DNA of 64,000 bases from Asterochloris sp. CNOR1 (Eukaryota > Chlorophyta > Trebouxiophyceae > Trebouxiales > Trebouxiaceae). Of this stretch, positions 1 to 64,000 are shown in pieces. The notes beneath the pieces are model-generated. The model made no database searches. It was given only the letters and a program-made list of their open reading frames with translations, and was not told the DNA's origin. The stretch lies in the NCBI GenBank assembly GCA_963969365.1, contig OZ017751.1:2852001-2916000 (forward strand), in the 5' to 3' direction. The position numbers and the translations under genes were made by a program. Numbering within the stretch: position 1 is the stretch's first letter; every line of letters begins with the position of its first letter.

Positions 1-1654
1 GAGGTGGACGTGTTGCGCCTTCTGGTCTTCACGGAGGCCTGGGAAGGGCTGCTGCCTGCCCAGAGCAGCCACGATGAGCCTGCAGGCATGCTCCGCCCAA
101 AACCGCTTCAACCTGCACCCCAGGTGTGACTGGAACATGCTCTTCTATCATGCTGCCAGATGGAGCAGAACAGGTCATGGCGGCACCTATGCCAGGTACC
201 CCTGCCACACATGTCACTGGTCCAACCGAATTTGTGCGTCTCAGAAGGGGTGGAAGCTGGGCGAAGGCCCTTTTCCACCTTGGCCAGGGAGGCTTGGTTG
301 CACAGGTCATGTCAGCGCCTGCGCCACTTAGCTCTCTGCCCACCTGTCAAGAGCCGCCTGTCAAGAGCCGCTGTCTCCTGCAACAGATGCCAGCTGAGCT
401 ATCGTCTCGGCACTGGCCTCTTCTCCTGGTGCATGCAGACCCTTTCCTGCCTGCCCAGCTAGAAGCTGTTTGGTGGCGTCAGGCTGCTCCAGCTGGCCAT
501 ATAGCTCAATACTCACACGTGCAGGATGCCACCCCTCCTACACAGCCCGAAACCAGCTCGTCCAATGGCAGTAGTGAAGGCAGCCCCAGGCTGCGTCAGC
601 TGGCGGCCAACCCTCTGTCCCAGCAGGAGCGTGTCAGGGCAGAGGCCCTGGCAGGGCAATGGAAGGTGCTGGACCTCACAGCAGTGCCTATTGAGGAGAA
701 GGATGTCCTCACAGGTGAGGTCGAGGGCACCTCTTTGCAGAGGAAGCGTTTGATGAGCTCTAATGCGTCTGTCAAGGCAAACCTACAAGTTGACTTGCGT
801 GCTCAAGCACCTGGCAGGCTCCGCTGATTTGCTGGCCCTTGTCTTTGGCAGCAGGAGCCTCAAGTGAGCAGTCTTCTTGGGCACTTACTGTCACCCTGTC
901 CAACCGTCCAACTTCCGCTTTCTGCAGGTGTGGTGCGCAAGGTGAACGTGTTCTTCAGCCAGCAGACCGAACAGACCTGGGACCCTCCAGCCAGCGCCTC
1001 TTTGTCCGAGGACGGTGCAGCCATCTGGCTGCCCCACAGGCTCATGGTAGAGCTGCGCATGGTGCCTGCGGTAGGTGAAGATGTGCCTGCACAATCTTCT
1101 GGCATATATGGACTTGCGTCAAGGCAGAGTGCAGCTTGTACATGCAAGCACGCAGCCTGCTGGCAGATCCAGGATGGAATTGCATGTGATGGTGCCTGCG
1201 GCTGGTGGCACTTTCTGCGCTTGAGTCTGATAAGTGGTGCGTGATGTATTTCCTTGAAAGCTTTTGGGGCTCAAGAGTGCAAGTTGGTCATGCATGCACT
1301 GAGTGTGCAGGCCTCCCAATACAGCTGCTGACTGATGATGCCTGGCAGGGGTTTCAGTCTGGCGCCTTGACTGGCCTGCTGTCAGAGTCAAGCATGTTGC
1401 GTCGTTGCTGCATCAATGCTGCTGTCGAGCTTCAGAGTGGCCTGCACTTGTCCCATGCACAGGTCAGCCGTGGAAATGATGGGGACAGTGAAGAGGGCAT
1501 GCAGGCCAGCAGCAGCCGGGGTCTCCTCATATCAACTGCTTTTCTGGCGCGTGACGGCATGCTGATCAGCATGCAGCGTGAGTACGACGCAGGAGGCAGC
1601 TTGACTGAGGTTCGTAGCCGCAGTGCTGTCAGGGGTGGCTGGGTGCCCATGTAG
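1..1654 (+). CDS. Unrecognised multi-exon gene, 5' end cut off by the window edge
   Basis: Four exons join in phase: up to 123, 525-714, 928-1070, and a last exon ending at the TAG at 1652-1654. The last exon starts at 1349, or at 1505 if a later in-phase TGCAG is used. The 714/928 junction restores a glycine codon in ...DVLTG-VVRKVNVFF, and every donor is GTG or GTA. The protein is soluble, with no membrane segment. It has a Ser/Thr/Pro-rich linker near residues 42-60, a helical Q/E/R-rich stretch ending in QWKVLDLTAV, and a C-terminus with REYDAGGSLTEVRS. That tail loosely recalls small beta-barrel proteins of the DUF3598/CpcS sort, but too weakly to name. The intron after exon 3 carries a decayed copy of the exon end at 1171-1206. 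Intron 124-524 shows nothing else. The splicing model is fairly secure; the function is unknown. Confidence 0.55.
1171..1206 (+). repeat. Decayed copy of an exon end inside the next intron
   Basis: The stretch ends in TGATGGTGCCTGCGGCTGGT. This repeats the end of the exon at 1043-1076, which reads GCATGGTGCCTGCGGTAGGT including the donor. In the copy the donor GTAGGT has become GCTGGT. It is one of several exon-derived relics in this window. Confidence 0.45.
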
Positions 1655-2717
1655 ACAGGCATGACAACCATTGTTGCTGTATTATTTTGAACTGTGACCT
1701 CGGTCCTTTATGAAGCTTCCCTGCTCTAAGCAAAGGTGTGAATTGACTAAAAGTACATCAGGACCAGCACATGCGGGCCACACTGCCATGACGAGACTTT
1801 CAGGCCTCTCTTTGCTTTTCTGCACCATCACCTGACAACCTGATTCATGGAAATGTGAGGTCCACTCAACCTGCACGATATGAGGTTTGACTGTCTGAGC
1901 TGAAGTGGCTTTCTAGAGGGACCTGAGACATGCTTGTCTCTTTGGAGGCTTGACGCAGGCATGCTGAGTAGGAAGCAATTCCCAGGAAAAATGTCTGGTC
2001 AAGTTGCACACTATCTCAGAGGTGTGAGCTGAAGTGGCTCTGCAGAGGGACTTGAGAAGGTGCAGGTGTTGTTGGAAGCTTGAAGCAGGCATGCTGAGTA
2101 TATGTGAGCTGCCCCTTATGCTTCAGAGAGCATAAGGCTGAAGGAAAGTGTGTTACAACAGCAGCCTCTCCACGCCAACCCCTCAAGCTGCTGAGGCCAG
2201 TGGAGGACAGACACAAGAACCTGTCCTCCTGCGACTTGAGCCCGTTTACCTCTATGAGACCTGTTGTCAGTGAGATGCCCTTGGTGTGCCGTACAGCGCA
2301 GCCATATGATTGTCTGACTTGACTGCGCTCCATTAACTACACCAGGAATGTCCATCGCAGGCGTCACTAACTGTCCTTCCAGATCCATTCTGAAGTCTCT
2401 GAACTGGACATTTCAATTGCAGATGCCGGGGAACAACTGACGCGCAGTTGCGTAATGTGGTCCTCAGCCAGCCCCAGGGCTGGTGCAGTTGTTGATGTAG
2501 CTGCTGTGCTGAGCGGATGCCACCTGCATGGAGGTCAATCTGGGGCACCAAGCGCTAGGAAGACCTGATTGACTACATTTGACTAGGTCTTAGGGTTTGG
2601 AAGGCACCACGGAAGGCGAGGCCGCTTTGACCATCTCACCACTACATATTATGACACATCAGTTGATTGACCATGCCCCGCACGGCGCAGACCGGTCGCA
2701 AGCAGGTCGCCATACAA
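1655..2717. other. Intergenic region between gene 1 and the methyltransferase pair
   Basis: I see no convincing coding exon here. It holds the direct repeat at 1897-2103. From about 2470 it also contains the left end of the tandem duplication that carries the methyltransferases, so the 5' flank of copy 1 (about 2490-2717) resembles 5985-6190. Any promoter of copy 1 should lie here; no recognisable core promoter motif was seen. Confidence 0.5.
1897..2103 (+). repeat. Direct repeat of about 76 bp, two copies
   Basis: Copies at about 1897-1972 and 2028-2103 share GAGCTGAAGTGGCT, then AGAGGGAC.TGAGA, then GAGGCTTGA or GAAGCTTGA followed by the block GCAGGCATGCTGAGTA. The spacing is 131 bp. Neither copy is coding. 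Confidence 0.75.
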
Positions 2718-5466: not shown

Positions 5467-6190
5467 CTGCTGCCAGCCGGTCACAGCACAGGATCTCAGA
5501 TCTAACGTTGGCACATGCATGCTAGCAGAGACATGTCTACAACTACTGCAACCTGCACTGCATGTGGGGGTGTTCACCACAATCCACAGGGGAGCCATCT
5601 CAAAAGTGGGGACTGTACAAAGCTGGGCAATGTTGGCAGTGGCCACAGGTCTGTGGGGTTCTACCACTGGGGTTGATTGTGCTCTGTGGTCTGGCCACAC
5701 CATAATGGGCATGGCCAGTCTGGTTGTACAGCAGACTTCATGCTTCCTCCTGAGGAGTGACAGGGATTGCGGCTCCCCCGTCAACTGTTGCAGTCAGTGC
5801 CTCACACTCATGGCCCAAGGTCCAAGCTTGAGCTGGCCACTTTTAACGCAGAAGCCGGAGATCATACTTTGTGCCAGACAGGTGTTTCCATCGCATCTGC
5901 TCCTACCTTCCCTCAGAGCGGCCATCAATCACACCTGCAGACTGTGCCAAAGTCTCCAGCCGGCCCCAGAATGATTGACCTGGTGAGGTAGCTGCTGTAT
6001 TGAGCAGATGGCACCTGCTAGTGCATGAAGGTCGGTTCAAGTCATTCGACCCAGGTCTCACCCAGCGCGCCAAAGTGCCTTAGGTCTTAGCTCGAAGCAC
6101 CCCTATCGCTTGTGTCAATCATGACACATCCCAACAGTTGCTTGTCAGTTCCTACCCCGCACGGTGTTAGACTGGTCGCCAGCTGGCCCC

Positions 6191-8930: not shown

Positions 8931-8962
8931 TGCTGCCAGCCTGTCACAGCACAGAATCTCTT

Positions 8963-9736: not shown

Positions 9737-12700
9737 AACAGATCAAGGACGCTTGGGAGGCTCTGGCCATGCGATTCCGGGCGCTGCGCAACTCATTGCA
9801 CTCTGAGGGGAATCACAGCCGCAATCCTGTGCTGTCAAGGGCCGTGCATGAGGTGTCAGTCGATGTGGGCATGCGGGCAGACAGGAGCGAGGAGTGGCAC
9901 AAAGCTTTGACCATCCTCAGCCGCAATGTGTTGCCCAGGTTGTGCAAGGTGAGGCTCTTGACACCAAAACATTGGGTACTCACTTCCTATGCGACGCAGC
10001 AGATGGCTTGCAAGCTGTGAGCCAGCCTGTCACTGCTGCTGACATGCGTTCCGCAGCTGCATGCCTCAGCCCACCCCACGGAGATGCTCATGTGCCTGTC
10101 AAACTGCACATCCACCACTGGCAGGGTCCTAGCCATGAACCGGTTGGGCCCTGTGAGCGACGTGTGACACCTGAACCTGAACGGCATCTGCCTCACCACA
10201 GGTGCAGAGCTTTAAGTGCCTTGGTGCAGGCGGCAGCCCGCAAACCTTCCTGATGGCTGCTTGCATGACACCAGATCCAGTATGGTATCTGCCTCATCAC
10301 AGGTGCGAGCTTTTGATGCCTCAGTGCAAGCGGCAGCCTGCTCTCCCTGATGACTGCTTGTAGGACAGAGGGGCAGAGGACGACGGTAAACCCCGCTGGC
10401 CTGCTGTGAGCAAACCTGCCAACACCCTTGGTCTCTGGAATGGTCATTGCAGCCATGTGCCTGAGCGCAAGTGGCAGTCTTGAACAGTACCATTGCAGCT
10501 CTGGCTGTGTTCTGCCTGCAGGACAGAAATGCAGATGCCTGCAGAGCACCCCTGTCAGCTCCCCCGCCCTCGCCTGAAGAGGCTGACAGGCAGTCAAATG
10601 CTGCCCTGCACGCGGTCTACAGCTGCCGCCGGTGGCACCTGGATGCCCTGGGGACGCTCACAGAGGCTGAGGATGCCTCTACTGGATGGATGGTGCAGGA
10701 GTTTGGCAGCTCCAGGGTGCATGGCCCCCACAGCCAAGCAGACCTTCTTGCATGGTGGGTCTGAAACGCAAGCTGCGCCCCATCGGATGCGTGCTGGTGC
10801 ACTTTACCGGGCAGCAAGCATTTCAGAAGGCCTATCCCTGCAGCGCTTTGGCACCATCGCCTCCAACATGCACTGTACATCCCATAAAAGGCTTGTGGGG
10901 CGTCATTCAGTTGCCGCTTGGCAACAGGAGGTGCCCTTGTACGGAGGGCACCTCCAGATTGCTGTCAGCTTGTCAACCCCGCTTTCCATGTGCTGTGTTC
11001 AGGGATGCTCGGCCCAGTGGTGGCAGATCCTCAACGCTTCACTTCTGCAGCTGCCTGTTGTAGGTATGTCAGCGGCGCCCCAGCTGTTGGCCAGCCTGGC
11101 AAACGCCTCCTCGCAGACAGCCCGGTGGCACAGCAGCAGCATGGAAGGACGCCTCTGGTGTGGCGTGCCATGGGCGCACAAGCAAGGCTGTGGAGGGTCT
11201 ACCATGCTGCTGTGCGTGCAGCAGCGCAGATCCAGATACCTGCAGGTGACCTAGGCACGCAGCCTCAGCAGCATGCTGCCTGCCGAGCTCCCTCTGTCAA
11301 CCTGCCTCTTTGTTGAAGCTGACATGGGTGCTGTATGTCCTACTCAGGTTGCTCATGCAGCACATGCGGTGCTGCTCCTGACATCTTAAGCAGAGGCTCC
11401 CGCGCCACATACATCTCCAGGTTCGGGATGCATGCTGAGTGTCTGCTGCTGCACCGTGCAGGTGACGAGGAGCAGAGAGCCCAGGACAGTGACCCACCAA
11501 CCTCTGGCACAGGACGTGGGAGCCCCGCAGTACCATCGATGTCTTTCATGGAGGCTTGGCGGGCGCTGAGTGCCACCTCTCTGGCTCCTGACCCTCTGCC
11601 AGGCCTGCCGGCTGTTGAGGCCAGTGAACATACTCGTGCACGCGGCCATTCATTGCTTGTTGAGGGATGTGGGAGCCTGCCAGGCCCTGCAGAGCACAGA
11701 GACCGGTCAGACGCGGTGGGCCAGCAGGTGCTGCGGGGCTTTGCAGCAGCAGCTGCAGAAGCGGATCTCAGGAGCCCACTGGAGGCATGGGAATCCCACA
11801 CGGCGCTGCTGATGCTGGCCCTAAGCTGCAGCCGCAAGGTGGGTGCCTGCCGGTGCACAGGGCTGCCAGGGCCCTGCAACAGGGATGTCAGCTGACATAT
11901 GTGCTCCTCAAAGTGTGGGTGTCCATCAGCCTGGCAGCTCTCCAGTTGGTGTCACCAGGACCTTGCCAGCTCCTTGAAGCCAGACACTGCGATGCATGGT
12001 GAGAGTGGCAGCAAGGCTGGCTGCATGTGCCAGCATGAGCTGCATGCCTGGCTTGATGACACACCTGAACGGGTGCCAGCCAAGCTGCCTGCTGCTTGCA
12101 AGCGGCAGCACTGGCAGGTGCCTGCGGTGCTGCAGCAGCCACCCCTCAGCATTGCTCCTGACTTGCCTGCAGAGGCACAGCATGCGGGACCTCCTGCTGC
12201 TCTTGCGGGGCCTGCCACCGCTGTTGCTCAAGGCAGGCCCGCTGCGACAGGCGCTGCGTGTTTGCAGCGCTGTCCAACGGGGCGATGCTGGCACCTTTCT
12301 GCAGGCTTTTCACGCTTCTGGCTGGCGGCAGCAAATAGCCATGGCCCCCGTGGTGCGGCAGGTGGGCAGCACTGCGCAGCCAGCCCCCGCCTCTGCTGCA
12401 ACGTCACAGCTTGCGGCCTCTGGCTGGGCCGAGCCTTGAGCCATTGTAAGCTTGGCTAGGTTGCATTTGCAGCAGGGGCTTCCTGTAGATGTTTTCGGTC
12501 CTGCAGCCGTGACGCATCAAGCCATGTCCTTTGTGCTGCAGATGGAGCAGCTGTGCCTGCACCAAATGTTGCAGGCCTACCTGCAGCTCAGCCTGCGCGA
12601 CGTGGCCAGCATGTTGCACCTCACGACCGCACCATCCTCGCGGGAGCATGTGCTGGAGACGCTCTCAGCACTGGCAACGAGGTGCGCGAGGTGGAGCTTG

Positions 12701-21800: not shown

Positions 21801-24800
21801 CCCCCATGGCTGCCCTGTCCTTGGCAGTGGCAGGCATGCTGGCAACAGGCTGGACGCCAGCAGGCTGGGGCTGCTGCTGCTGCTCAGAGGGAGCCAGCAC
21901 GCCACCAGAGATGCCTGCACTGGGTTGCTGGCGTGTTGTGCCACGCCTCCGCTTGGCCGCACCAGCAGCTGCCGAAGGGTGTGCTGCTCCACCGCTGGCA
22001 TGGCCTGCATCACAACAAGACTGGTTTATTACAGGGCGGCTGAATCTAGCAGATCATCAATCAGCCTGCGCAGCTGGAAAGCAACAGGAGCGCAAGGTAA
22101 AGCGCAAAAAGTTGCGTTTGTTGGCAGCAAAGCAGGAATGTTTCACTGGTCACCGGAGAAGACTGAGTGCCTGCCCCATTTTGCGCTGAGGGCAGGCAGA
22201 GTGGCAGGCAAGCCATGCCTTCAAATGCGCACGCACTGCTGTCGGCACGCCCCACAGGAGCACAGTTGGGGTTGCTGTAGTCAAGATGAGGGCGCAAAAG
22301 CCCTGCCTGCTTGCACACCTGAGGTGGGGGGCTTCTCAGCACAGGGGCCAGCCATGTCTGCGCCAGCTGGAGCTTTTCTCTTGATGGCTCAGACCTTGGC
22401 GCTGGCGCTGGCGCTGGCGGCATTGCTGCCGGCGGGCTGAGCAGCAGCAGTGTGAGGCTGCTGCTTCTGCTCCACAGGGGCTGAAGCGCCATGGGCAATG
22501 GCTGTACCAAGTGCCTGCGCCACGCCGCGCCTCCACTTTGCCGCGCCAGCGGAGGCTGAAGCGCCAGCTGGTGCAGTCTTGTCAACAATCTCCAGGCCTG
22601 CAGCAGCAGATGCTGTTGTTACAGGAAGGCTGGAGCCAGCAGTGTGTTATACAGCGTTTCTGGTGCAGCATTTTGGCTCAAACATGAAGAAGCAGTCATC
22701 CCCAGGCCATGAGCAGGCTGAGCAGTTGTCGGCTAGGCTGACCATGCGCACTGAAGAGCTGGAGCGCTGGCCTGCAGCTCCTGGCACTTTGCAAAGACAC
22801 TCAGGGGATGCCCGGCCAGCAGACACACACAGGATTGGTGGCCATATGCAGGCCAGCATATGACTCTCACAGCATATGACTCACCTGCAGGGACACCCTG
22901 CAGCAGCGCATCTCATGAGCGCAGACCTGAAAGACGATGCCTCACGTGCCGGCCGCTGACGCTCACCTGAGTGGGCAGGCTTCTTGGTTGAGGCCGCTGA
23001 GCCTGTGGCACCAGCGACCAGGGCGCGTTTTGCCCTGCAGGTCATCATGCAGGTGGGGCCGGCGGCCTGGCTTGTAGCAGCCTCAGCAGCAGCCGCCCCA
23101 GACTGCTGCTGGGGCTGCTGCTGCTGCTTGGCAGCGGCCTGGGTTCCTGAGGGTGCATCAGCAGTTGGCGGCTTGGCGTGGGACTTGAGGGCACATAGCT
23201 GGGCACGGGCCGCAGGCGCAGTAGCATGGCTGGCGGCATGCTGAGCAGCAGCAGCAGCAGCACCGCCTTGGGTTGCCCAACTTGGACCAGCAGAGGACAG
23301 GCTCTCTGCAGGGGCACTGTTGCCAGCCAGGCCTGCATCAGAGGGAGAGAGTGGTCAAGATCTGGTCTCACAACACATGGCTTGGTGCAGGCTGCCAGGG
23401 CTGCAGATTTAGGCAGGCAGAGAGACTTGGTGCAGGACCTGGTGGGGGGCCACTACAGCTTCAGCTGGCAACAGGCATGTTGACTGCCAGGCGACGCAAA
23501 AGCCAGAAACATGCAAGATATCGCACCACCTGACACAACACAGGCTAAATGCCTGCAGCAGTAGGTCCGAGCCAGCATGGTGGCTGACAACTTCTGCAGT
23601 TAACGGGCAGCGCAGCGGCTGTGCACGTTGTCAAGAAGGCATGTCAAGTCTACACTCAGCTCAGGGGATATGATCAGGCTCTCCTCTGCAGCACAGTGGT
23701 CACAAACAGAGCCTGGGCAGTGGAGCATACCAGCACGCCAGCCATGGCTGTGAAATGCCATCTGACACCACATGCCTACCCTGCAAGAGCACAGGCCCAT
23801 CGGGTGCAAGCCTGGACTGCAGCTGCTGCCCCCCTTTGTCCATATGCTGCCTGCCGCCATTTGAAGTGAGGGACACAGCTGGGCTGTGTTGAATTCTCTT
23901 AGCCACCGGCACCTCCTCTGCAGCAGGTCGGGCAGCCCCCTGGGTCTTGCCAGCAGGCTGCTGCTGGCCCATGCGGGTGCGCATGCGCCCCACCGCCACC
24001 TGCTTGCCAACCAGGCCCAGTGGCATGGCGCTAGCCTGGGATGGGCCTGCAGGAAAAGAGGAACATGTTGGCACAGCCTGTGGCAGCAAGCAGGTGTACC
24101 TGGACACCTGGCAAGGAGCGTCTTGCCTGGGACTGGCCTGCAGGACAATGGCAAAATGAGCACATAGCAGGAGGGTCTCCTTGTGCCCCTGCAGAGCAGT
24201 GCTCCATGTGTGAGTGGCCCACAGGAAGTAAGCAAGCATTGAGCAAAGCCTGTGGCAGCAGCGGGTCCTGCTGTTGCCTGCAAATGTGAGCTCAGCCTGT
24301 GACAACGGGAAGACGATCTGTTAATGGGCTGGCTGGTAGGAGGTGGGTACCTTCATGTGTACACGTGTGGCAGAACAGCACTTCATATGTACCCGCCACA
24401 GATGCACTGTTTTGCGCATGCCTGGATGGCAAGGACATCACTGTTGCACATTCTGCAGCAGGTGCAGGCCTCAAGGAGTCAGACATTGCTGCGCAGGGAT
24501 GGCCATTGCTCAAGTTGTTGGCTGGTGCTGCTTGACCCAGAGCTGGGCGTCACATCAGGTCTTTTGTGGCAGCTTGCTTCGCAGACGCAAAAGCTGAATG
24601 TTATGCTTTGTCCAAACTGAAATGTGCATGCTATTGTCAGCAGCCACTGCCAGCACTGTCTGCTCAAAATCGTCTGCAACAATCACATCTGCACACATCA
24701 TGGCTGCTTACACTTCCCTGCAGTTGGCGCTCAGGATTGCCCAAACAACAATTAACAATGCAGCAGAATGGTGCATGCACCTGCTGCAGAGCCACTAGAG

Positions 24801-25723: not shown

Positions 25724-25923
25724 GACTAGGCTCTGCCGCGGAGCCGGCCTCTAAGCTTCACGCTGTGTGCAGGGGGTTACATAGCATAGATATAGGTCAA
25801 CAAAAAACTTGTTGAACAATAGGCAAGCCTCTTTCTGCTTCTCAGGTCATCTGCAGAGGAGGCGAGGCGGTGTCTTACCAGATCTTGGCAGGCGCGGGCA
25901 ACCTTTGTTGAGGAGCTGCCCGG

Positions 25924-26510: not shown

Positions 26511-26815
26511 TGGCTAGGCAAGCAGCATCCCCTTGGACCCAACTGGGCTTTGGCTCATTGCGCCCACTGTCATTTTCACTGCAGGCATGCCCACCTTGGT
26601 CAGAAGCTCACAGGCTCAGCCCACCTCCAGAGGAGGCACAGCCCACTTCTGGGCCAGCCTGTGTACTGCAGATCCATGACCAAAACACGGATGGCTCGGC
26701 GAGCAGCATCCCCTTTGACCCACCTTGGCTTCGGCTTACTGCATCCTCTATCTGTGTGCTGCAGGCATGGCTGCCGTCGTCAAAGGCTCATTCTGGAGGA
26801 GGCACAGTTGTCACA
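26511..26815 (+). repeat. Imperfect direct repeat of about 130 bp, two copies
   Basis: Copies begin at 26511 and 26692. Shared blocks: GCAAGCAGCATCCCCTT / GCGAGCAGCATCCCCTT, then GGACCCA / TGACCCA, a TGCAGGCATG stretch, and AGAGGAGGCACAG / TGGAGGAGGCACAG. Both copies are non-coding. The first contains a phrase like a tRNA D-arm, but no T-arm follows. Confidence 0.7.
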
Positions 26816-42000: not shown

Positions 42001-45000
42001 TGTGCTTCTAAAGTTGGTGTCTGCCCTGTGCTGGGTACCTTCAAATCAATGCCATGTCAAGGTTGCAGTGTAAGTCTTATCTCACAGTGGATATGTAATA
42101 TCCTGTTCTAGCCTGTGCTGGTCACCCAAGCAGTGCTTGTGCTCCTGATGCCTGCTTCTTGACTCCCCTTGTAGCTCCTTTGCATGGGTACTGTGCTGCA
42201 GGTGGTGCCTGGCACACGCGTCGGGGCTGGAGGCCCGGCAGGCTTCCCTACCCTGAAGACCCTGGCCCTGGATTCTGCTGTCAGGATGGCGGGAGTGGAG
42301 GTGTTTGGGCAGCCCAGCAAGAAGGAGAGCCTCATCCTGCTGGTCAAGGTGAGGTTTTTAAGTGGTGTACTCAACCGTGTGAACCCAACAGCCTCCAGCG
42401 GCTGGCTGCGTGCTGCTGATCAGGTAGTGTGAGTTCCCACTGGCAAGTCTGGCGCTTGCTGCAGAAGCAGGGGTTTGTGCATTTTTGGTGGCCAGGCATG
42501 CAGAGAAAACCTCACACCACTGCACGGGCTATGCAATCCGCAAGAAGGACAAATGCAGATTTCCTTTGACACCCCGCACATGAGCTGTAGCCAAGCAAAG
42601 TCATACCCGGCTAGGGTGCTGGCTATGGGGTTGTCATGCCCTCTGCTCAGCGTACTAATGCCCGGCTTGCAGGACAAGCTGAGCCGCCACCTGGAGTCAG
42701 GCGAGATCACGGCCAAGGAGGTGGCTGCTGGCATCCTGGGGGAGCGCTGCTGGATCAAGTGGCCCTACCTGCAGGAGGCAGTGGTGGTGGCTGTGTCAGA
42801 TGGCAAGCAGACGGTGAGCCGCCAGATGCTGAGCTTGCGCGAAATTGACCAACCAACATCTGCTGCTGGGTGCTGCTGCGTTGGCAGTGCCAAAAAGGTT
42901 GCTGCTTCCCTGGATGGCAGGTGCAGGGTTGGGCGCTCTGTGCTTTAGATGAGCCACTTCTATAGTAAACTAGTGCACTTGTTATGCCTCAAGCCTGCAG
43001 AACATTGTTTGCCCAGTGACTGCTGCACTGGCCCCATAGGTTGACAAGGAGGGCGCCAAGGCCCACGACAAGGCGGCCATGGAGCAGTGGCATGGGGAGT
43101 CCTCCAACCTCAGCAGAGAGTTCGTGGTCAAGCATGTGAGTGGCAGTTGACTCTGCGTGAGAGGCTGCAGTACTGCCGGTGGGCCGCTGCACAATGTGCA
43201 GGCTGCAAGTGCCCATCCTCACAGACAGCATACCCATCTGCCGGCAGCGGGCCTCAGTTCTGCTCAGTTTGCTTGGCAGGTTACACAATCTGTTCCGCAG
43301 GGTCTGTGTCACGGTCAGTGTGCGCTGCTGCCGCATGTGCGCTGCTGTGAGGGGTGATGATGCAGTCTGTTGAGACAAAACCTGAGAGGGCTCGTCTCCT
43401 GCCTTATTGTATCAATGCGCAGCATATGTACTGTAGGGCCTGGGTGAGGCCCAGTCTGTGCGGCTTCTGCATGTGTGCCTTCCTTGGTGTCAGCCCTGCA
43501 CATCTGGTGTGCTGCAGGGTTTGGACGTGGGCCAGTGTGCGTTGCTGCTGCACGTGCGCCCTTGTGAGGGGCTGGTGCGCCAGGTGGACGGGTCCATCGA
43601 GAAGCGCTTCAGCCCCAAGCACCTGATGTACCCCATTCAGGTGAACGCAATGCTAAGGCACTTGAGCTTCCAGCGCAAGCCCCCATCCCTGCCAGTGTGG
43701 CTGCTAGTGGCTCAGATCTGGTGGCTCAGGCAACTTTGGCAGTGATGAGACCCATTCACTTCTTTCATGCCTTCTTCCCTACGTCATCAACGGTGCTGCC
43801 CATCATGCCCCGTAAGCTGCTTGTTCTACAAACTGGCAGCAGTTCCATTGCATCCTGGAGTGCTGCTCTGACAGTTTCATGTGTAGTCAGTTATATCTTT
43901 TGTGCCTTTTTCATGTGCTGCTGCGCTGATAGGCTGCATCTCAAGCGCAGAGCAACCCTAGGCACATGCATGTCTTCTGTGCAGGCCACCTTGAGGCGCA
44001 ACCCTGCGCCAGACCTTCGCCAGGATGCGACCGCCATGGCACAACTGCGTGGGGGGCTGAGCTTTGAGGAGGGGCAGCACGTCCTCTTCTTGGGGACTGC
44101 CCACTATGGCTGCTTGGCCAGGATACTGCCAGCACAGTATGCAGGCCTCAATCAGCAGGTGGGTGGCTGGTGTTGAGCAGGGTGCCCCCTGCAATACAGC
44201 AGGCAGGGCACACAGGTCTTCTTGCTTTCTGTTTGGCAAGGGAAGATGGGTGGCAAGGCAGTCAAAGCTGAAGGTCAAGGTAAGCTTGCTGCCCATTCAG
44301 AGACGGCTCTTCAGCCGCTTAGCCGAGACTGATGGTGGTTGGGGGTGGCACTGGTATGCCCATCACTGACATGGATGCAATAAGGAGGCCATCAAGAAGA
44401 GCACTGCCCTTTGTGCCGGTGTACTCAAGCTTGCTGGCTATGGCTACAATGCTCGCTCAAAACATGACAGCTGGGTTGAGCCATTGTGGACAGTGGCGGT
44501 CCTGACAAGTTGTGGCATGCAGCCTTTGCTCTTCAGTGACATCACTGGCAGCAACATGATACAACCCCGCTAGTTCAACCTATATCTATGCGCATGAATT
44601 GCAAGAGATGTACAGGCATGGTCCATACAGCCCTGCACAGCACACGCTTTGTATGCTGACTGCAGCTGCAGGTTACTTGGCAACATTCAGCTAGGTAGAG
44701 TCTTAGTCTGGGGGACAGAGCTTTCAGCAAGTATGTGTCTGGGTCTGGCCCCTGTGCAGGCCGTCTGTTTGAGCGATTACATGCACAGTGGCTGTCCCTG
44801 CTGTCTGCAGACACCTGGAGTGTGACTGTGGTGCTCGTGTGCATGACATCATACCCCAGTTTGCTCTTCAACCTTCTGGATTGAAGAGCAGATGTTTGCT
44901 CTTCGATCTCCTGGATGGTTGAGCACATGGGGGATGAGTGCCATGCACACAAGCACCACAACCACACCGGGTGTTGCACACAGCATGGCCATCCAGGCAG

Positions 45001-48000
45001 CTGCTAAGGAGACTGCACAGCGGCCACACCCAGTTCATTCAAGAGTGTGTCTTGGAGGAGGTGCCTTGTAAGAAGAGGTGAGACAGCATCTCGCCTCTAT
45101 GAATAGGGCTTGCTGCTGAGCACATTAGGCATCTGGAGCTTAGTTTCTTGCAGGACATGATAACTGGACCTGTCTGCATCAGCATAGGAGCTAGCGGCGT
45201 TTTGCGACTTGGCAGGGCAGCCTGGCGCCTACCTCTTATGCATGTCCCTGATGTCAGAGCATGGCAGCGACTAGATCATATCCACATAGGCTGCTGCCCT
45301 TGATGATGAGTATCCCTCAGTGTGGAATGGCAAAGTCGTGTGCCTGGCATGGGCCAGACAGCATTTGACATCCCTTACTGTGCAATACTCTGCTGACAGT
45401 GGTCATGTGGCACCACTATTCCCAGCACAGCCTGTGAGCAACAGATGATCTGCCAATTGTCCATGATTCTGCATTAACAACAAGGCAGATAAGGGCCTTG
45501 TTGTGTTGTCACTGGTCAACATTGCACAATTGGTGCCTTTCCAAGGCCTTGCTGCACAAGTGCTAGACCTTGGACAGGCGTCAATTGTGCAGCACCTACC
45601 CATGACAGCACAAGGGAGTGATGAGGACGGCAGTACACTGCCTCCTTTGCTTTCTGTGAGCTTGGCTGCTTGAGTAGTCCATTGGACTACTAGCCGCCAA
45701 CCTGCCGCATCCAGAGTGAGGCTGCAGCATTGCCAACCCCTCACCCCCCCCCCCCCCCCCCCCCCCCCTCCCCCCCCCCCCATCAACTGTATATTCATCG
45801 GAGTGAGAAGGTCCCCATTGACAGTCTAGTAAGCTGCAGCTGGCTGCATTGCACCTTTGCTACATTTCTGGCTTATTGTGCCTGGGCTTTCTGCATTCAC
45901 CCACGACAGGTCAGGACACCTGGCAGGCTGCTGCACGCGCCAGAGCCAGTGAATGTTCAGCTGAGCTGGCAAGACAGTTGCTGGTCATGAGATTTGTGGT
46001 CTTGCGGCAGCCTCCTCGTTATCAGTGATGCGAGAGCAGACACATGCCATTATTCACACTACTAGCAGCGCCCTGGCAGCCATTAGTGACACTCTTCATA
46101 CTCCTCCCCTCTTCAGGACTGTGTTCCCCAGCTCAGATCTCGGTTGTGAGTCTCTGAGCCTGCACAGAGCTGCCTTCTGGCAAACCTGCACAACAGGCTG
46201 TCACCAGATGGCATGTTGGTAAGCAGTATCACCAGAAGGCAAGCACACGGCAGGCAGGAGCCAGACAGCCTGAAGACAGGTGTGAAGAGTTGATCTTCTG
46301 TGGAATGACAGCATGCTGCCTGCATTGTCATCAATGACGCACCTTGCACACATTTGAGGTCGCCATTTGCTCTGCGCTGAAGCATATGGCTTGCTTCCTG
46401 GAACTGGCCTGAGATGTGGTGCCCTGGGCCCTTATCGCTCCAGCACGAGGTGCTGCCAAACCACTTGCAACACTGCTGAAAGGCAGGCCCAGGCTGACAA
46501 GCATGGCCGTTACAGGAGCTGTCAACTTCTGCTCTCAGAATCAGGTGGTGGCCATACGCCAGCACTCAGATCACGATGCCAGCAAGAGAGCCCACTGGAG
46601 GTGCCCAGTGCTGCTTGTGCTGGTCGTTCCAATCTCATATCTGTCAGGTTGTTACCACCTGAGGAGCTTTCGCTGTTGGGCTCGCCTGCATTGCTGTGAA
46701 GTGCATGGGATGGGGTATAACTTGATTGGCTCTAGTCATGGTCACTACCTGACAGGCCGCAGTCTGGCCAATTGGATAATCTTCTGTTGCGCGTCCCTCG
46801 GTCTGTGTGACGGCAGTCTGCCTGCACACTCACTGTGGCACCCCCTCAGATGTCAAGGTTGGCTGGGCAGGGCTGCTGTCAACCTATCGCCTTGTGCAGC
46901 CTGTACAATGAAGGGGTCATTGAGCACCACATGTGCGTGCGTAGACAGCTGTTACCTGTGGGAACTCCACCGCGCAGCTGCAGGCTGCATGGCCGGGCGC
47001 TGCCTACTCCTTAAGGCAGCAATCAATTCTCAACTTAAAAACAGAAGTGCACTCCATCTCATGTCTCCTAGAGTTCATCTACCTTCCTGCTGCCTGCAGG
47101 GCCAGAAGCTGCCTGCCAGCAACCCTGGCGGCATGCTGCACATTGAGCTGCACCCTGCCAGTCCTGCGGGAGTCGCAGTGCAGGCCGCTGCGAAGCGCAT
47201 CCTGATGGGTGTCCTGGTTCAGTACCAGCCGAGCGGGCTGGTGGCGCGCAAGCTGCAAATGCAGCCACGCACTCTGGGCAGGGTGACAGGTGGGCTTAGA
47301 GAGCCTTGGTGATGTACTCATGGTCTTGCCATGAACATCATAGACATTTCCACTGGTCTGCAAGCACCGCCAAGACAGTTCAGTGCGCACTACACCTATG
47401 CAACCTGGCAGTGGTCGGTCAGACACCTCTGTGTGGTGCAGCTGCATGTCTTGGCATTTGGTGAGCTCTGCCTGCCTGCAACTGGCAGCCAGGCACATAG
47501 ACCATTGCAGCTGAAAGCTATGAACCATGCAACTGTCTGAATGAATGAGTCCCCTTACATGACCTGTGTGTAGCCAAAAACCCCCTTGCAAACCCTGGCA
47601 GTCCACCGCGCACTGCGCTTGCTTGGACGGCCTACAGTTGCAGGCCTCAAGTGATCCTGTGCCCTGCAGGCAGCCTGTGGGTAAGGACGGAGGAGGAGCG
47701 CATCGACCTGGGCCTGTGTGTGAAGCATGCAGCCAAGGACATGTGCGTGCCAGATTACGTGCAGCCCATGTCCGAGCGGGCAGGGTGGGCCTACTCACAG
47801 GCGCTGGTGGCTGTCCTGGAGCAGTACAAGGTGTGTGCGGATTGAGGGTGGATCGGCCTTCTTTTAGATCTTGAGGCAGGCATTGCTGGCACATCAGGCA
47901 GTGCTGATCTGCATGCTCCCCAGCAGCACACACCCCTGACGCTGCTGGGCAGGCCCCTTGAACCATCGTCGGCCTGCCTGCAGGGAAAGCATGCACAGTG

Positions 48001-51000
48001 CAGCTGATGCGCGTCTGGCCCTTCTACAGCGGAACTAACTTCCTGTGCCTCAATGTCTCTTGACAGGTTGCTCCTTACAGAAGGACACACACCCTGCAAC
48101 TGCTTACTGTGTGCTGCCTGCAGAGACGCTTCCCCTGGGTGTTTGCCATGGTTGAGCACCAGCAGGAGACCTCAGACTTTGAGCTGGGAGAGGTGCTTCC
48201 AGGTGTTGAGGCGGAAGCTGCGCTCCAGAAGGTCAGGGAGGCTAAGAAGTGGATCAGCACGCTGCCGCTCTCCAAGCGGCCCCTGGTGAAGGTGAGAGTT
48301 AGGTCCCCTGGTGCTTTCGCTCTCCTCTGGCACAAGTGCTTGCGAGCCAGCTTGTGCATCACGCAGTACCATGCTGCTGCACAGGGCACCTGCTCTGTCA
48401 CTTGATGAGGATGTCAGCTGCAGGATCAAAGCTACTGTTGGTCAACTGTGTTCCTGGCTTGGCAGCGGTAGCTTGCTGCTGGCGGTATGACCTCTATGGC
48501 ACATCAATACTGCTGCTGAGGTTTTGCTTGTTGCTGCCTGCCCGCCGATGTCCTCTCTTAAGGACGTTGCGCAAATGCGTCAGCGTAACCTGACACTGGT
48601 CTACCTGTGCTGAACCTGCCTGCAGACGTCTTCGCGAGTTGCGCCAGAAGACGCCATCAGGGCGCTGCAGGCCTCCTTGCCCCCAAACCTGGCCAAACCC
48701 CAACAGCCGCTGGAGCTGGAGAATGTGTCGCCCCAGCTGCTGGTGGCCCCTGTGGAGCGCGGCATGCTCACCCTGGCAGTGGCTGGTGGGAATCTGGAGC
48801 TGGGCGACCGTGTGGCTTGCCTCAGGAACACAGGCAAGCTGTCGTGTGCTAGCTCTGCTGGCTGCCATCTCATAGGACAGGGCTGATGGAGCACGAGTCT
48901 TGCATTTGGAAGCTGGACCTGCCATCAGTTGACACGAACACAAGGACTGGCTCCCAGGGTTGCTCGGGGGTTGACCTCGTGGTGTGCCTGCGCCATCATT
49001 GCCGGACCTGTGAGTCCCGGGTGCAATGCCTCCAGCCCAGCACATCTTACATGCTATGTTGCTGCAGGCACCCCAACTTTTGGGGCACGAGGGACTGTGG
49101 TGGGCGTGCACGACGATGCGATTGAGGTCCTGTGCGACGCCACCTTCATCGGCGGCACAACGCTACATGGGCGGTGCAATGGCAACTGTGGTACCATGCT
49201 CCTGCGGGAGCACCTGCTCAACCTGTCAAAGCCCCAGCCTGTGGCGCTGCCAGGCGAGTGGCTTGTGCAGCTTTTCAGCAAGGGGGGGTTGGCACTTGCT
49301 CGGCAGCAGTGTCTTCAGAGAGTCCTCTGACAGCAGTCCGCCAACTCTTGACCTGGACATCTCACCTGATGCCAGGCCCCTGTGGCTGCCATTCTGCTAT
49401 GCAACGTGAGGACTCACCTGTTGAGGGCAGCACGCCTAATGAAAAGGACACAGATCTTGTCAAGCCTTCGCTTGCTACATATTGCTCAGCTTGCCATGGC
49501 CTGATACACACAATCGGCCTGAGATGAGCGTGCACTGGGCTGGCTGCACCAAGCTCCGTGCTGCCCTGCTTCAGGCGGCTCTGTGCCGCGCCAGGTCCGG
49601 CAGATGCCGCGCCAGCCTAGCGCCAACGCCCCCATCGTGAACGGTGCTGGGAGTCCCCAGGACAGAGGTGAGAAGACACTGCATGCAGCAGTCTGCCGGT
49701 CATGCGCCTGTGCACTGCATGGCACGTGCTGCTTGAGGCTCGTGTTGAAACCATGGGCAAATCCAGGTCAGCATCTGGTGTGCTCTGGCATGCGCAAGAG
49801 TTGGGGGACCGTCTGTGCATTTGCCTGAGCTTTTATGTGTCCCTGCAGCTCCCCCTGGAGGACGAGCAGCCACTCCTGCAGGCAACTCTGGGAGACCTCT
49901 GCAGGTGAGCAGGGGGCTTGTGCTGAGGAAGTTTGTGCAAGTGCAAGGGATGCACAGCATTGGAGGACATCTCACTGTTAGGCTGGGCTTGGGAGCAGGC
50001 AACCCCTTTGTGATCAGTTGGACAGAGGCATGTCATGCTGGTGTAATGCATCATGCGATCCCAGGCCTGGGGCCCAGTTGTGTCTGAGGATACAAAATCA
50101 GGGTCTTTGTAGGGGACCCAGGTGGTGGGACAATGACGTGGGAGGGCCCTCCTGGAGTTCAAGTGAAGGACAGCGATGCAGGGAGGGGTCTTCAGAACTC
50201 TCTGGACATTTCTTCCATTCTGATTTGCAAGCATCCCTCCATTCCAGCACAAGAGCTACGGTTTGTAATTGCTGCAATCCTACACTTGAACTGGGTGTTG
50301 TGGCCACAGGAGGTGGCCCTGAGCCTATTCAGGTGGTACAGGATTGCAGCCTTCTGTGGCTGGGGCAGCAACGGTCACGACAGCTGTGAGCAAGGCATGG
50401 AGTTGAAACATATGCCAGAGATGGCAATTGGCACGGCAGCTTGGTCAGCTGCCCTGGTCTCAGGGACTGTCACCATCTGCCTGTGTAGGATCCAATTCGA
50501 ATGCACTGCAAGGGTTGCGCTTGTGCAGGGGTCTGGACATACTGCATTGTTGTCGTGGCTGCCCCATGAGGCTACCAGGCCAGCCATGCAAGCAGAGACA
50601 CCGCCCATGCCACAGAAGAGATATGCCTTGTGGATAGCTGTGAGGGTGCAGCAGGTCCAGTTTGAGACCGCAGCAATGGTGTGGACTCAGTGTTATGCTG
50701 TCATGCACTGAGCCAGCTAACAACAACAACGTCTGGTTTTGGAAGTCTTGCTCAGCAAAAGTGTCATGTTTGCGAGCCGGTGGCATCCAAGCATTTGATA
50801 GCCAAGATCTGCCTGTGCTGCACATGCTGCAGCGCTGGTGTGTCACCTAGTTAGTTTAAAGTGCCACAGCAGAGCTGAACTGGGTCCAATCTGCCTTTCT
50901 TTGCCAACTGCTTGTTTTGCTATGGGGCATGGCGCTGTCCATGACAGGGCCTCTCCCTGAACCAATCAAGCAATTTGCAAAGTTTGGCAGGTGGGTCCCA

Positions 51001-60456: not shown

Positions 60457-63400
60457 CTGCTCATATCTCGCCCAAACAGGATTGTGGTAAGCCAATTCAG
60501 CATGACATAGATCCTGTTGTTGATGGATCCCAGACGAGTGAGGTAGGCACTGCGCCAGGCTACCCAGCTCCAAAATCCCGACAGGTTGAGCCAGGGGCGC
60601 TTTGCATCGCCAAGAGCCAGCACCGCGCCGTGGCTGCCTGCAAATAAGTGCTTGAGCCATTCTATGTGCTGCATATGCTTGGAAGGTTGAGAATCAGACG
60701 CAGGCGCCTGGCATTGCATGAGGCCAGCACCGCGCAGAGGTGCAGACAAAGCAGTGCCTGCCATATGCCTTGGGGCAGCTATGTGCCGCACAAGCCCACA
60801 GACAGAAGTGTGGCTGCCTCCTGATGCTGCAGGTGTTTGAAAGGTGTAGGCAGGGGCTCCTGAGTTTGCTTGGGGCGAGCATTGCGCAACGGCCACCTGC
60901 AGGCACAGCAAAAGCAATGCCTACAGGTACGCTCCCTGTTGCAGCTGAGTGCTCTACGAGCCGGTTGTGCTGCAGGCATTGCAAGATGCATGAGATGCTG
61001 AGGGCTGGGCATCCACCTGCGTCCTGACAGACTTCAGCCATACTGGCCTTTCACAAATGTATATGTGCTTGTCTTGCAGCAGGCAAGGCAACACTGCCTG
61101 CTAATGGCAGATGGTGTGTGGGCCCTGGCCGTGGCGCCATGTGGACTGTAGCAGTGTCGTCTTGAGAATTTGGCGGCAGGCTCGCAAACTTGCTGGGAGT
61201 CATGCTGCTTGGAAGCCGACTGAGTTGCTGGCAATCGAGGGGCAGGGTGGCCCCCACAGAGTAAGTCCACAAAGACTGGAGGCCAGTCTACCAACGGCTT
61301 GCCCCCAGCAAGCTCCTCCCCTTGATAGCGTTGTGCTGATGCACTGCTGCAGCCCACCAGCTGCCATGCCGCCAGGTCATCATCGCACTACATATGGGCT
61401 TAAGCCGCTTGATTTCCAAGGGCAGTGTGGCACCCACAGCGTGGACCTGCTATGAAGCGGCTTGCTTAGAAGGGCAGTTTGGCCTTCTCAGAGTGGGCTT
61501 GCACCGATGGGAGGCCATCTGCCTTAAGCACACTCTTCCCCTGTACAAGGCAGATCCGGGCTCTGCAGTCTGTGCAACGCCAAAAAGACTGCCAGCTCAC
61601 TCAAACTGTTTGAGCTACGTAGAGTGGCATGGCACCCTGTAAACTCCATGCTCAAGGGCTGTGCTGCAGCACCCTGGCTGTGAGGCCGCCCAGCTCACCG
61701 ACTTGCGCCATGGAGCCCAGCTGCTTAAACTCAAAGGGCGGCATGGCGGCTGCCTGGCTCTTTCCCTGGGCCAGCTTGTTCAGTTCCTTTGCCAGGTAGG
61801 CGCCCTGCTGCTCAGCCACCTGCACAGCGGATTGTTGCCAGGTGATTTCAAGCAGTTTGTGGGGGCTGGCCTGCTGCTCGGCGCCCCGCAGGGCGCACAC
61901 AGCAGAGCCTATGTTTCAGCACGTCTGGCCTGTTTATCAAGATTCTCCCCAGGTATTCGGCCACCTTCTGTAAGCAAGAAAATAAGGTGTACTCGGTGTC
62001 AGGAAGCGTCTTGTGCCAAGGCACTCTTGCCCTGCTGCTCAGGCATCTCCACTGAAACTGCCATGCAGGATTGCCTGCTCTCACTGCTATGCCTGTGTTG
62101 TGTTGTACAATGCTGAGAAATGAGTACAGTGGCGTATGGCTGCAACACATGCTGCCCTTGAGTTCAGCAAGCCCAGCCACGGTGCACGCAGCACCACATG
62201 GGATGCAGTGTCATGATGCTGTGTGTCTTGCCGACGAAGCAGACTCTCAGGCCTCACCTGGGCTAGCGCTGGGAGGGGCTTGTCAGGATTTGCACTGCAG
62301 CCAGCAGGACACAAGCATGAGCAGTGTGGCACGGCAGCATAAGCAGTGTGGCACGGCACGCAGCAATCTGAGTATGGACTGGCTAGCAGCAAGTTAACCT
62401 GCATTCGCAGAGCCAAAGAGCCAGCTGGGCACATCATAGCTCTGGGGCTCATTTGGGAATGCCATGCCATGGTGCCAGGGCCTGGACACAGCAATGAGGT
62501 CTCACCAACAGTCTCCCAGGGCATAGATGCGAGACACAGGTGTGAGCTGTTCTGGTGCAGCCTCTCCCGGCTCTCGGGTCTCAGACCTCCCATCTGTCTC
62601 GACCTGCACAATGTCCAAGACACTGTTGCACACCTGCTGTGGCAAGCGCAGATCCTGCACAGGCTTCTTGCCAACCTGCCTCCCTTGCAGAATGTGTCAT
62701 CACAACTCTGACTATACCAAGGCAAAGTAACTACAGATTTGCTTTCTGCATGGCAGAGCCCAGTCAGCCCTTCAGCAAGGCGTGCAGAACAGCAGCCTTG
62801 GGAGTCTAGTGGCAGCTTGGATCCCACAGCAACACTTGTTTTGCAACAGGCAGCATCACGTCCCAGAGATGCTCACGTCCTCAGGCCTGCGTGGCTGCTC
62901 CTCAGCGCCAGGCGAGCGTGCCGCCTGCAGGACGCGCAGGCTTGAGTCCACCGCGATGCGCCCCTTTGCCGTCTTCGCAAAGTTGAGGGAGGTTGTGAAC
63001 TTTGTTGGCCCCACTCCTGCAATGAGAGATCTGCTCAGACCAGCAGTGACTACAGCAGGCTGCAGGTGCAGCTTGATTGTAATTGCATCCTTGAGGGGTC
63101 CGTGCCTGCGTTGCAGTCCGTCAAGCACTATTGTCACTGTGCAATGGTCGCCCCACCAGCATCAGCAATGTTGGCACAGCCACAAGTCATTGTGGTCACA
63201 GCAGGCAAGCTGGGGGTAAGGGAGGCTCACTTGACATGCCTCGCCGTCACAGAAGCTGCCCGGCAAAGTCTTTTGTGGATGGCTCATGCAGCTGATGCAG
63301 GGCACCCCAGTCCTGGGCAACCTGGCAGCACTTGCGCCGCCAACCTGCCTCAGGCATGCAGGCACACATACAACAGTCCCAACCCACCTGTGCTCCAGAC

Positions 63401-64000
63401 GGCCAGGCCAAAGTCCATCTCCTCGCCGTTGGTTAGTTTGCAGTGCTTGGGGTGAACCTCTTTCACCATGCCCTGCAGCACATACGGAAGCCTGTGCTGC
63501 ACTGTACTTGGTGTGAGATAGTAAAGTAGGAGCTTGCAAGACAGCACAGGAGCGAGCCGACCCCTGCATCTAGCCTCCGCGCAGGACAGCTTCTCACATG
63601 CATGAAGGCGCTGCAGTGTAAGGCAGTGTGGCACTGCGTGCTGACCTGCAGTGAAGCCATGATGCCAGTCTACTGGCAAAGCACCTGCCAAAGCAGACTG
63701 GCAAGCAGCCAGCCAGGCCCACACGCACCAGATGGGCTTCTTTGGGGGGTCTTAGTGCGAGCAGCGTACTGCCGCCACTGTCCATCAAAGTTCGCAATGA
63801 GCAAGTTCCACCACTTTGCTGCTCCATTCAAATGGCAGCCAAGTGGACCCAAAAGGGAGGCCGGACCCACCTGCACCAGGTGGACCCCTGCACGGGTCAG
63901 CTTGCGGGCAGCATACTGCCTGAGGCGCCCGTCAAAGCTGCCCAGCAGCTCCTGCGCCTCCACCAGGGTGACCCTGCACAGGCACTGGTGGGTGACTCCC
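60457..64000 (-). CDS. Type II NAD(P)H dehydrogenase (alternative NADH:quinone oxidoreductase), C-terminal half
   Basis: Oxidises NAD(P)H and reduces quinone without pumping protons, normally on a mitochondrial (or plastid) membrane. Exons, in transcript order: 63973-63871, 63472-63388, 63016-62877, 62546-62506, 62294-62258, 61819-61699, 60637-60457, all joining in phase. They give VTLVEAQELLGSFD and YAARKLTRAGVHLVQ (end of the NADH domain), MVKEVHPKHCKLTNGEEMD then LAVWSTG, GPTKFTTSL, the FAD-site signature RIYALGDCCANPDKPLPALAQ (split by two introns), VAEQQGAYLAKELN, FEFKQLGSMAQVG, and the amphipathic membrane-binding tail SGFWSWVAWRSAYLTRLGS with ILFGRDMSR. No EF-hand insert appears between the domains in this part, so it resembles the NDA/NDC class rather than NDB. 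The N-terminus and targeting peptide lie beyond the right edge. The last codons after GRDMSR are unresolved. Confidence 0.92.
61190..61500 (-). repeat. Three decayed copies of an NAD(P)H dehydrogenase exon segment in the following intron
   Basis: On the minus strand, GCCACACTGCCCTTGGAAAT then CAAGCGGCTTA (about 61405-61437), GCCAAACTGCCCTTCTAAGC (about 61462-61485), and GGCCACCCTGCCCCTCGATT (about 61230-61250) echo GCCATGCCGCCCTTTGAGTT then TAAGCAGCTGG in exon 61699-61819. The first copy matches at about two thirds of positions; the others are weaker. Confidence 0.45.
63712..63830 (-). repeat. Decayed copy of an NAD(P)H dehydrogenase exon with donor, in the following intron
   Basis: On the minus strand the copy reads AACTTTGATGGACAGTGGCG then GCAGTACGCTGCTCGCACTA. 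The real exon, 63871-63973, reads AGCTTTGACGGGCGCCTCAG then GCAGTATGCTGCCCGCAAGC. The translation NLLIANFDGQWRQYAARTK mirrors ELLGSFDGRLRQYAARKL. The boundary CATCTGGTGC.. then GTGGG. is kept as well, so the copy includes the donor. Confidence 0.8.

What the first reader, a model, noticed from the sequence alone, without database searches (positions are those of the whole stretch)
1171..63830. Decayed exon copies lie in neighbouring introns of five different genes
Seen directly: intron stretches that resemble an adjacent exon, often with its splice site, at 1171, 24085, 27385, 29503, 34332, 40887, 43301, 61190 and 63712. They sit upstream or downstream of the source exon at a distance of roughly 100-450 bases, in genes on both strands. 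Some encode nearly the same peptide as the source exon, for example FDGQWRQYAAR against FDGRLRQYAAR. Inference: introns here grow by repeated short tandem duplications that include exon edges and then decay. I know of exon duplication as a general process, but not of relics this dense.
Basis: partly seen in the sequence, partly recalled or inferred. Interest (0 to 1): 0.78.

Follow-up and report, generated by a model that had tools for sequence, protein, structure and literature searches.

The report
Ancient exon-edge copies in algal introns
Introns of what looks like a lichen alga hold worn-out copies of the edges of neighbouring exons, apparently left by old short tandem duplications that splicing hid inside introns; such duplications are known elsewhere, but these seem mostly ancient.

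Summary
Of nine sites, five copy an adjacent exon better than every control (29503, 34332, 40887, 43301, 63712). A sixth (24085) copies a predicted exon edge. 1171 is borderline, 27385 fails, and 61190 matches only non-exonic sequence. The host genes number at most four: five sites lie in one XRN1 gene.

The process is genome-wide: in 18 sampled 10-kb stretches, 46 of 502 predicted splice edges have a local direct match, against 0 of 502 controls. Intron interiors are hit about as often (31 of 389), so exons are not targeted. In the sample nearly all matches are direct.

Two rules favour tandem duplication: acceptor-edge copies lie upstream and donor-edge copies downstream (37 of 39), and no intron-intron pair straddles an exon (0 of 34; 5.5 expected). 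Against this, matched stretches are short for their spacing.

Few pairs are young: of 76 with at least 30 compared bases, none differs by under 5%.

Best reading: mostly old tandem duplications of roughly 75-300 bp, perhaps from repair of staggered breaks, kept out of the mRNA because splicing still uses the original exon boundary. This is a known kind of event; whether its density is unusual is untested.

The parts
27055..49667 (+). XRN1 5'-3' exoribonuclease gene (recognised exons lie between these bounds), host of five of the nine sites
   Evidence: Pfam XRN_N 9.5e-95, XRN_M 4.5e-95, XRN1_D1 2.7e-35, XRN1_D2_D3 4.8e-23, SH3_12 3.2e-13 on joined exon translations
29508..29565 (+). relic of the start of exon 29644-29896, 152 bp upstream of its source; 76% identical
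29644..29896 (+). XRN1 exon, source copy 29660-29717
34323..34367 (+). relic of acceptor site plus start of exon 34657-34838, 321 bp upstream; relic AG intact
34657..34838 (+). XRN1 exon, source copy 34644-34688
40923..40968 (+). relic of the end of exon 40614-40784, 191 bp downstream; donor GT aligns to CT, just outside the match
40614..40784 (+). XRN1 exon, source copy 40732-40778
43291..43354 (+). relic of acceptor region plus start of exon 43518-43640, 217 bp upstream
43518..43640 (+). XRN1 exon, source copy 43508-43571
26687..26718 (+). unlisted relic matching 27070-27102 in the first recognised XRN1 exon, upstream of it
   Evidence: score 34 against control max 26
63712..63773 (-). relic of the donor side of exon 63871-63973 of the NDH2-type dehydrogenase gene; encodes FDGQWRQYAAR against FDGRLRQYAAR
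   Evidence: gene by Pfam Pyr_redox_2 and NDH2_C
60703..60760 (-). unlisted relic of the acceptor edge of NDH2 exon 60457-60637 (source 60596-60654)
   Evidence: score 39 against control max 27
24109..24148 (-). relic of the acceptor edge of predicted exon 23907-24046 (source 24021-24057); pair also alignable in a paralog about 0.15 Mb away
10165..10367 (.). pair in a predicted intron: complete adjacent tandem duplication, offset 101 bp, length/offset 1.05, 78% identical
38686..39501 (.). pair in an XRN1 intron: two matched islands at offsets 482 and 460, read as one decayed duplication (inference)

Best explanation
These are remains of short tandem duplications (offsets mostly about 75-300 bp) that struck this genome without regard to exons. 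A duplication inside an intron simply lengthens it. A duplication that crosses one splice site makes a second acceptor (or donor) with a piece of exon. The cell goes on using the acceptor that adjoins the rest of the exon, or the donor at the original exon end, so the extra copy is spliced out with the intron and decays. This gives a rule: acceptor-edge copies lie upstream of their exon, donor-edge copies downstream, and copies do not jump across an exon. Exon-edge relics stay recognisable because one of the two copies is held by selection. Most of the longer duplications are old, from a process that has stopped or slowed. Shown: excess, mostly direct orientation, geometry, lack of exon targeting, scarcity of young pairs. 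Inferred: the molecular cause (most likely fill-in and end joining at staggered breaks), the choice of splice site, and the slowing.
For: Excess and orientation: 150-bp tiles against the next 800 bp, score >=36. Window: 39 of 421 direct, 8 inverted; other-locus control 0 same-strand, 1 reverse. Sample: 53 of 1098 direct, 2 inverted; control 1 and 0. Ungapped scan of the 18 sample loci: 91 local pairs (offset 10-1500) against 2 at offsets 3000-4490, a control with roughly a third less area. No targeting. Geometry: 37 of 39 edge relics obey the side rule, 25 of 27 that span the splice site; 15 of 17 where the mirror position was also exon-free, p=0.0023; 0 of 34 intron-intron pairs straddle an exon, 5.5 expected, sd 1.7. 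Dead copies: exon-relic mismatches 13.8, 15.8 and 23.2% at codon positions 1, 2, 3. Age: of 76 pairs with >=30 compared bases, difference 0-5%: 0; 5-10%: 4; 10-15%: 13; 15-20%: 33; 20-25%: 24; 25-30%: 2. Ungapped segments of >=35 bp at >=90% identity: 5 of 15 at offsets 10-60, 3 of 76 at offsets 60-700. Not visibly transposons: the genome search reported only two short matches elsewhere for window 30000-46000. Precedent for tandem duplication by break repair: PMC5730883, passages.
Against: Matched stretches cover a median of only 0.25 of their offset, and similarity hardly continues outside them (flank at 40-80 bp that could lie in the unit: excess 0.61, p=0.022, n=108; the other five in-unit bins not significant). 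A uniformly decayed tandem unit would not predict that. A first side test at matched offsets, which did not exclude other exons as targets, gave 18 expected-side to 11 other-side hits among 260 + 260 edges at >=34 (10 to 4 at >=40), not significant at >=34 by my hand estimate. A first extension test with a weaker control showed excess beyond the unit too. The age counts leave out 13 of 89 pairs with under 30 compared bases; several of these are 95-100% identical over 17-22 bases. In the window, offsets do not drop beyond 300 bp as they do in the sample, and inverted matches are not rare. Exons are mostly from a home-made predictor without RNA evidence; only the XRN1 and NDH2 models have homology support. 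Two edges are counted twice in the 39, one of them also in the 17 (my reading of the rows).
Confidence: 0.68

Rival explanations
1. Spaced, not adjacent, copies: break repair copies 30-100 bp of nearby sequence (synthesis-dependent strand annealing) and pastes it 100-400 bp away, like the repair-mediated duplications and doublets of vertebrates.
For: Matched stretches are short for their offset, and similarity stops near their ends. Human proximal repair-mediated duplications have median length 147 bp; 824 of 1,136 donors lie within 5 kb, and a few include exons (PMC2671141, passages).
Against: Pasting should jump over exons and use both sides; instead 37 of 39 edge copies obey the side rule, 15 of 17 with a free mirror position, and 0 of 34 intron-intron pairs straddle an exon. 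Some pairs are nearly full-length tandem (10165-10367; L017 4454-4846, length/offset 0.80).
Confidence: 0.2
2. The copies are live alternative (mutually exclusive or extended) exons kept by selection.
For: Relic acceptor AG is intact in 12 of 13 cases where it lies inside the match; some relics keep a similar peptide.
Against: The copies examined are mostly exon edges; mismatches are only mildly concentrated at third codon positions; donors are intact in 9 of 14.
Confidence: 0.06
3. Chance or low-complexity similarity, strengthened by shared splice motifs.
For: Of the nine listed sites one fails, one is borderline and one is not exonic; CAG-rich stretches at 19.3-23.3 kb and 57-59.5 kb give many weak pairs.
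Against: Other-locus, inverted-strand and distant-offset controls give almost nothing in the sample.
Confidence: 0.03
4. Introner-like or other transposable elements carrying exon-like ends.
For: A dispersed repeat of about 260 bp sits nearby at 25541-25805.
Against: The genome search reported only two short matches elsewhere for window 30000-46000 (the tool skips very common words, so this is not proof of single copy); each relic resembles its own neighbour exon.
Confidence: 0.03

Closest known systems
Small tandem duplications from repair of staggered breaks (cNHEJ fill-in; PMC5730883, passages seen)
   Same: Direct, local duplication; [quoted passage not shown]
   Different: Here the copies are old and partial, so junctions cannot be read, and offsets reach a few hundred bp
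Repair-mediated duplications / doublets in vertebrates (PMC2671141, passages seen; Thomas et al. as cited there)
   Same: Short local copies, some with exon edges or splice sites; decreasing intensity during primate evolution
   Different: Those were found as insertions inside transposons, on average 1.2 kb from the source (partly an effect of that method); here copies lie closer and do not cross exons
Exon duplications and degenerate exons in introns (Exonize, PMC12343006, passages seen)
   Same: Exon-like matches in introns of the same gene
   Different: Exonize requires a set fraction of the exon to be covered; these relics are mostly exon edges
Intron gain by tandem genomic duplication (PMC4974935, seen only in a search listing)
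   Same: Tandem duplication plus splice-site choice
   Different: Here no new intron is inferred; an existing intron absorbs the copy

Membership tests
Short local tandem duplications | Copies in direct orientation | tested here: met
   53 direct to 2 inverted tiles in the sample, 39 to 8 in the window
Short local tandem duplications | Copies close together, density falling with distance | tested here: met
   Clear in the sample, with a drop beyond 300 bp; less clear in the window
Short local tandem duplications | Copies adjacent: matched length about equal to offset | tested here: inconclusive
   Met by some pairs (10165-10367), but median length/offset 0.25; geometry supports adjacency
Short local tandem duplications | Microhomology or clean junctions at breakpoints | not testable with these tools
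   Pairs too diverged; no related eukaryote genome held
Repair-mediated duplications by proximal capture | Copy pasted at a distance, free to land on either side of an exon | tested here: not met
   0 of 34 intron-intron pairs straddle an exon; 15 of 17 on the expected side; but one search was not significant
Mutually exclusive or alternative exons | Both copies under coding constraint | tested here: not met
   Codon-position mismatch 13.8/15.8/23.2%; no RNA data
Introner elements | Similar introns dispersed across the genome | tested here: not met
   Only two short matches reported for window 30000-46000; other regions not tested for this

The most novel reading that the evidence does not exclude
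This algal genome carries the fossil of a past episode of roughly 75-300-bp tandem duplication that has since ended, as if a duplicating repair route was gained and then lost or curbed. Introns acted as sinks because the spliceosome kept the splice site that preserves the exon, so splice-site duplication mostly lengthened introns instead of changing proteins. The side rule would let past duplications and splice-site choice be read genome-wide.
Probability: 0.35. Interest if true: 0.62.

Novelty: new member of a known kind. Interest (0 to 1): 0.42.

Why it matters
It gives a concrete picture of one source of intron length in an intron-rich alga. It also gives a simple test, the side of the exon on which a copied edge lies, that helps to separate tandem duplication from pasted copies and shows which splice site survived. 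The scarcity of young pairs makes it testable, with other Asterochloris genomes, when and why the process slowed. Gene predictors should expect decoy acceptors just upstream of real ones.

Tried and rejected
Exon targeting: rejected, since edge and intron-interior rates are similar in the sample. Transposon or introner origin of the XRN1 relics: no support. Live alternative exons: disfavoured. Hypermutation as a cause of fast divergence: mismatches are 410 transitions to 423 transversions; 183 of 833 lie in a CpG context in either copy (about 6% of single positions do; not a matched expectation), so CpG decay may contribute but was not pursued. Seeing duplications in the act by comparing paralogs: in the tandem gene pair at 2.6-9.1 kb, 0 of 8 indels of 14 bases or more had a significant local source; in the pair with C6:3.02 Mb, 1 of 9, a CAG-type repeat. 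Too little sequence to conclude.

What misled or failed: Pfam on ten long open frames gave 0 families. Self-trained codon usage locked on low-complexity sequence. The first gene-finder training took seed codons of the XRN search loci in the wrong orientation; the seeds were corrected, but its splice matrices were typed in from the result. blastn lists no pair closer than about 60 bp, so an ungapped scan was added. The first matched side test was not significant and the first flank test had a weak control; both are told above. In some searches, pairs starting at 19.3-23.3 kb, 57-59.5 kb and 30.7-31.7 kb of the window were left out as repeats. Structure prediction was not used.
Full report
SETTING. 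The window is G000:C6:2852001-2916000 of a 56.38-Mb genome in 21 contigs. Eighteen contigs measure 2.0-4.5 Mb and one 110,056 bases; GC is 57.7% over the window plus sample. This fits the lichen alga Asterochloris: A. glomerata 56 Mb, GC 56-62% in 98% of the nuclear genome, 9 introns per gene, mitochondrion 110,932 bp (PMC6652019, passages); A. mediterranea 57 Mb in 18 chromosomes (PMC12542154, passages and section 7). The identification is an inference from size, number and GC, not a sequence match.

GENES. A small gene finder, seeded with XRN and kinase exons found by Pfam searches of the genome and run on the window, 18 sampled stretches of 10 kb and four kinase loci, gave exons with donor CAG|GTGAG and acceptor CTGCAG|G. 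Joined exon translations gave XRN_N, XRN_M, XRN1_D1, XRN1_D2_D3 and SH3_12 hits, all on the plus strand between 27055 and 49667: one XRN1 gene of over 22 kb. The minus-strand gene at 60.4-64 kb hits Pyr_redox_2 and NDH2_C and solved type II NADH dehydrogenases (best E 6.4e-07). Gene pieces at 1-1.1 kb and 23.9-25.6 kb had no Pfam hit at E 0.01.

THE NINE SITES. Each site was aligned to 1 kb either side, with 100 dinucleotide shuffles. Six hold (24085, 29503, 34332, 40887, 43301, 63712), one is borderline (1171), two are not supported (27385; 61190 as an exon copy). Testing the 25 exons of the XRN1 and NDH2 models against adjacent introns and 60 non-adjacent controls each, 9 of 25 had no control as good; under one would be expected by chance. 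These 9 include five listed sites, two unlisted relics (26687-26718; 60703-60760) and two weaker ones: exon 28401-28575 (score 25, control max 24) and exon 47670-47830 (29, max 27), the partner of the latter falling in another predicted exon.

GENOME-WIDE. The same excess exists in 18 stretches on 18 contigs. Tiles with a direct match of score >=36 in the next 800 bp: 53 of 1098, against 2 inverted, and 1 (same strand) and 0 (reverse) in other-locus controls. The window is about twice as dense (39 of 421; 8 inverted; controls 0 and 1). Its inverted matches are probably the self-complementary stretches listed, many of them in XRN1 introns. Splice-edge, exon-middle and intron-middle windows in the sample score 46 of 502, 8 of 196 and 31 of 389 at >=34, against controls of 0, 0 and 2 and inverted 2, 0 and 1. 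In the window the figures are 12 of 160, 6 of 58 and 32 of 263, controls 1, 0 and 0, inverted 1, 0 and 13. So the process does not aim at exon edges. Fewer matches in exon middles of the sample is what selection would give; the window does not show this.

GEOMETRY. Of 44 exon-intron pairs, 39 touch or come within 25 bp of an exon edge. In 37 the copy of an acceptor edge lies upstream or the copy of a donor edge lies downstream (35 of 37 if each edge is counted once, by my reading of the rows). Where the mirror position at the same offset was also free of exons, 15 of 17 obey (p=0.0023). The two exceptions involve predicted exons of 74 and 75 bp with offsets of 104 and 157 bp, where a whole-exon duplication is possible. 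Of 34 intron-intron pairs, none has an exon between its copies, against 5.5 expected from random placement. Tandem duplication within an intron or across one splice site predicts both rules; pasted copies do not. Against this, matched stretches are short islands (median 0.25 of the offset) with little similarity beyond them, and a cruder side test gave 18 to 11, not significant by my hand estimate. I read the islands as the best-kept parts of old units, but short pasted copies remain a rival. Offsets of the gapped pairs under 1000 bp have quartiles 115, 192 and 299.

STATE OF THE COPIES. Exon-relic mismatches are 84 of 609, 98 of 621 and 142 of 612 at codon positions 1, 2 and 3, as expected with one copy constrained and one free. 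Splice dinucleotides inside the match are intact in 21 of 27 relics against about 17 expected from overall identity; acceptors 12 of 13, donors 9 of 14. The high acceptor figure may be an alignment effect or may mean that some relic acceptors are still used; RNA would tell.

AGE. Of 89 pairs (offset 60-700, repeat regions left out), 76 have at least 30 compared bases: 0 differ by less than 5%, 4 by 5-10%, 13 by 10-15%, 33 by 15-20%, 24 by 20-25%, 2 by more. The 13 shorter ones left out are necessarily similar, several 95-100% over 17-22 bases, and could be islands or small recent copies. Long young pairs are the easiest to detect, so a steady process would show the reverse. Short-period duplications (offset 10-60) do not show the gap: 5 of 15 segments at 90% identity or more, against 3 of 76 for offsets 60-700. 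The 24085 pair can be aligned in both copies of a gene duplication of about 86% identity there, so it probably predates it. Thus most of the longer duplications are old. An episode, a falling rate, or a past time of weaker selection would each explain it.

MECHANISM. Direct, local, untargeted duplication fits fill-in and end joining at breaks with long overhangs, shown experimentally to give tandem duplications (PMC5730883, passages), or slippage or unequal exchange. Junctions here are too old to tell. The continued use of the original exon boundary is inferred from gene models, not shown.

NOVELTY. Local duplications including exons and splice sites are known in vertebrates (PMC2671141, passages), and exon-like matches in introns are catalogued by Exonize (PMC12343006, passages). 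I saw no paper on this in Asterochloris or Trebouxia among the listed results of searches, nor on the side rule among those of searches; the listings are capped and cover only the open library. Density could not be compared with another eukaryote.

Noticed in passing
44780-45005: A 226-nt imperfect hairpin in an XRN1 intron, RNA folding energy -127.1 kcal/mol, z -9.45 against 200 shuffles; could be a small-RNA precursor. One search reported no other copy in the genome.
   Followed up: partly
30501-33024, 38953-39099, 45523-45703, 53194-53274: Further imperfect palindromes, most of them in XRN1 introns; inverted local matches are commoner in the window than in the 18 sample loci.
   Followed up: no
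30766-31613: Decayed tandem array of period about 166 bp in an XRN1 intron.
   Followed up: no
25541-25805: Dispersed repeat in two parts; 38 of the 46 genome matches reported for window 18000-30000 fall here, 79-90% identical (a lower bound); MITE-like by size only.
   Followed up: partly
2465-5497 and 5957-8960: Tandemly duplicated gene, matching segments 75-78% identical, with exon positions largely kept; looks like an O-methyltransferase from recalled motifs, not tested.
   Followed up: partly
21454-25423: Paralogous inverted copy at C6:3021590-3025618, 79-87% identical.
   Followed up: partly
19300-23300 and 57000-59500: CAG/GCA-rich low-complexity stretches.
   Followed up: no
L021 (C2:3.975 Mb) and L024 (C15:44-47 kb): Two further XRN-family genes elsewhere in the genome.
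   Followed up: no
45744-45781: 38-base run of C, 94% matches.
   Followed up: no
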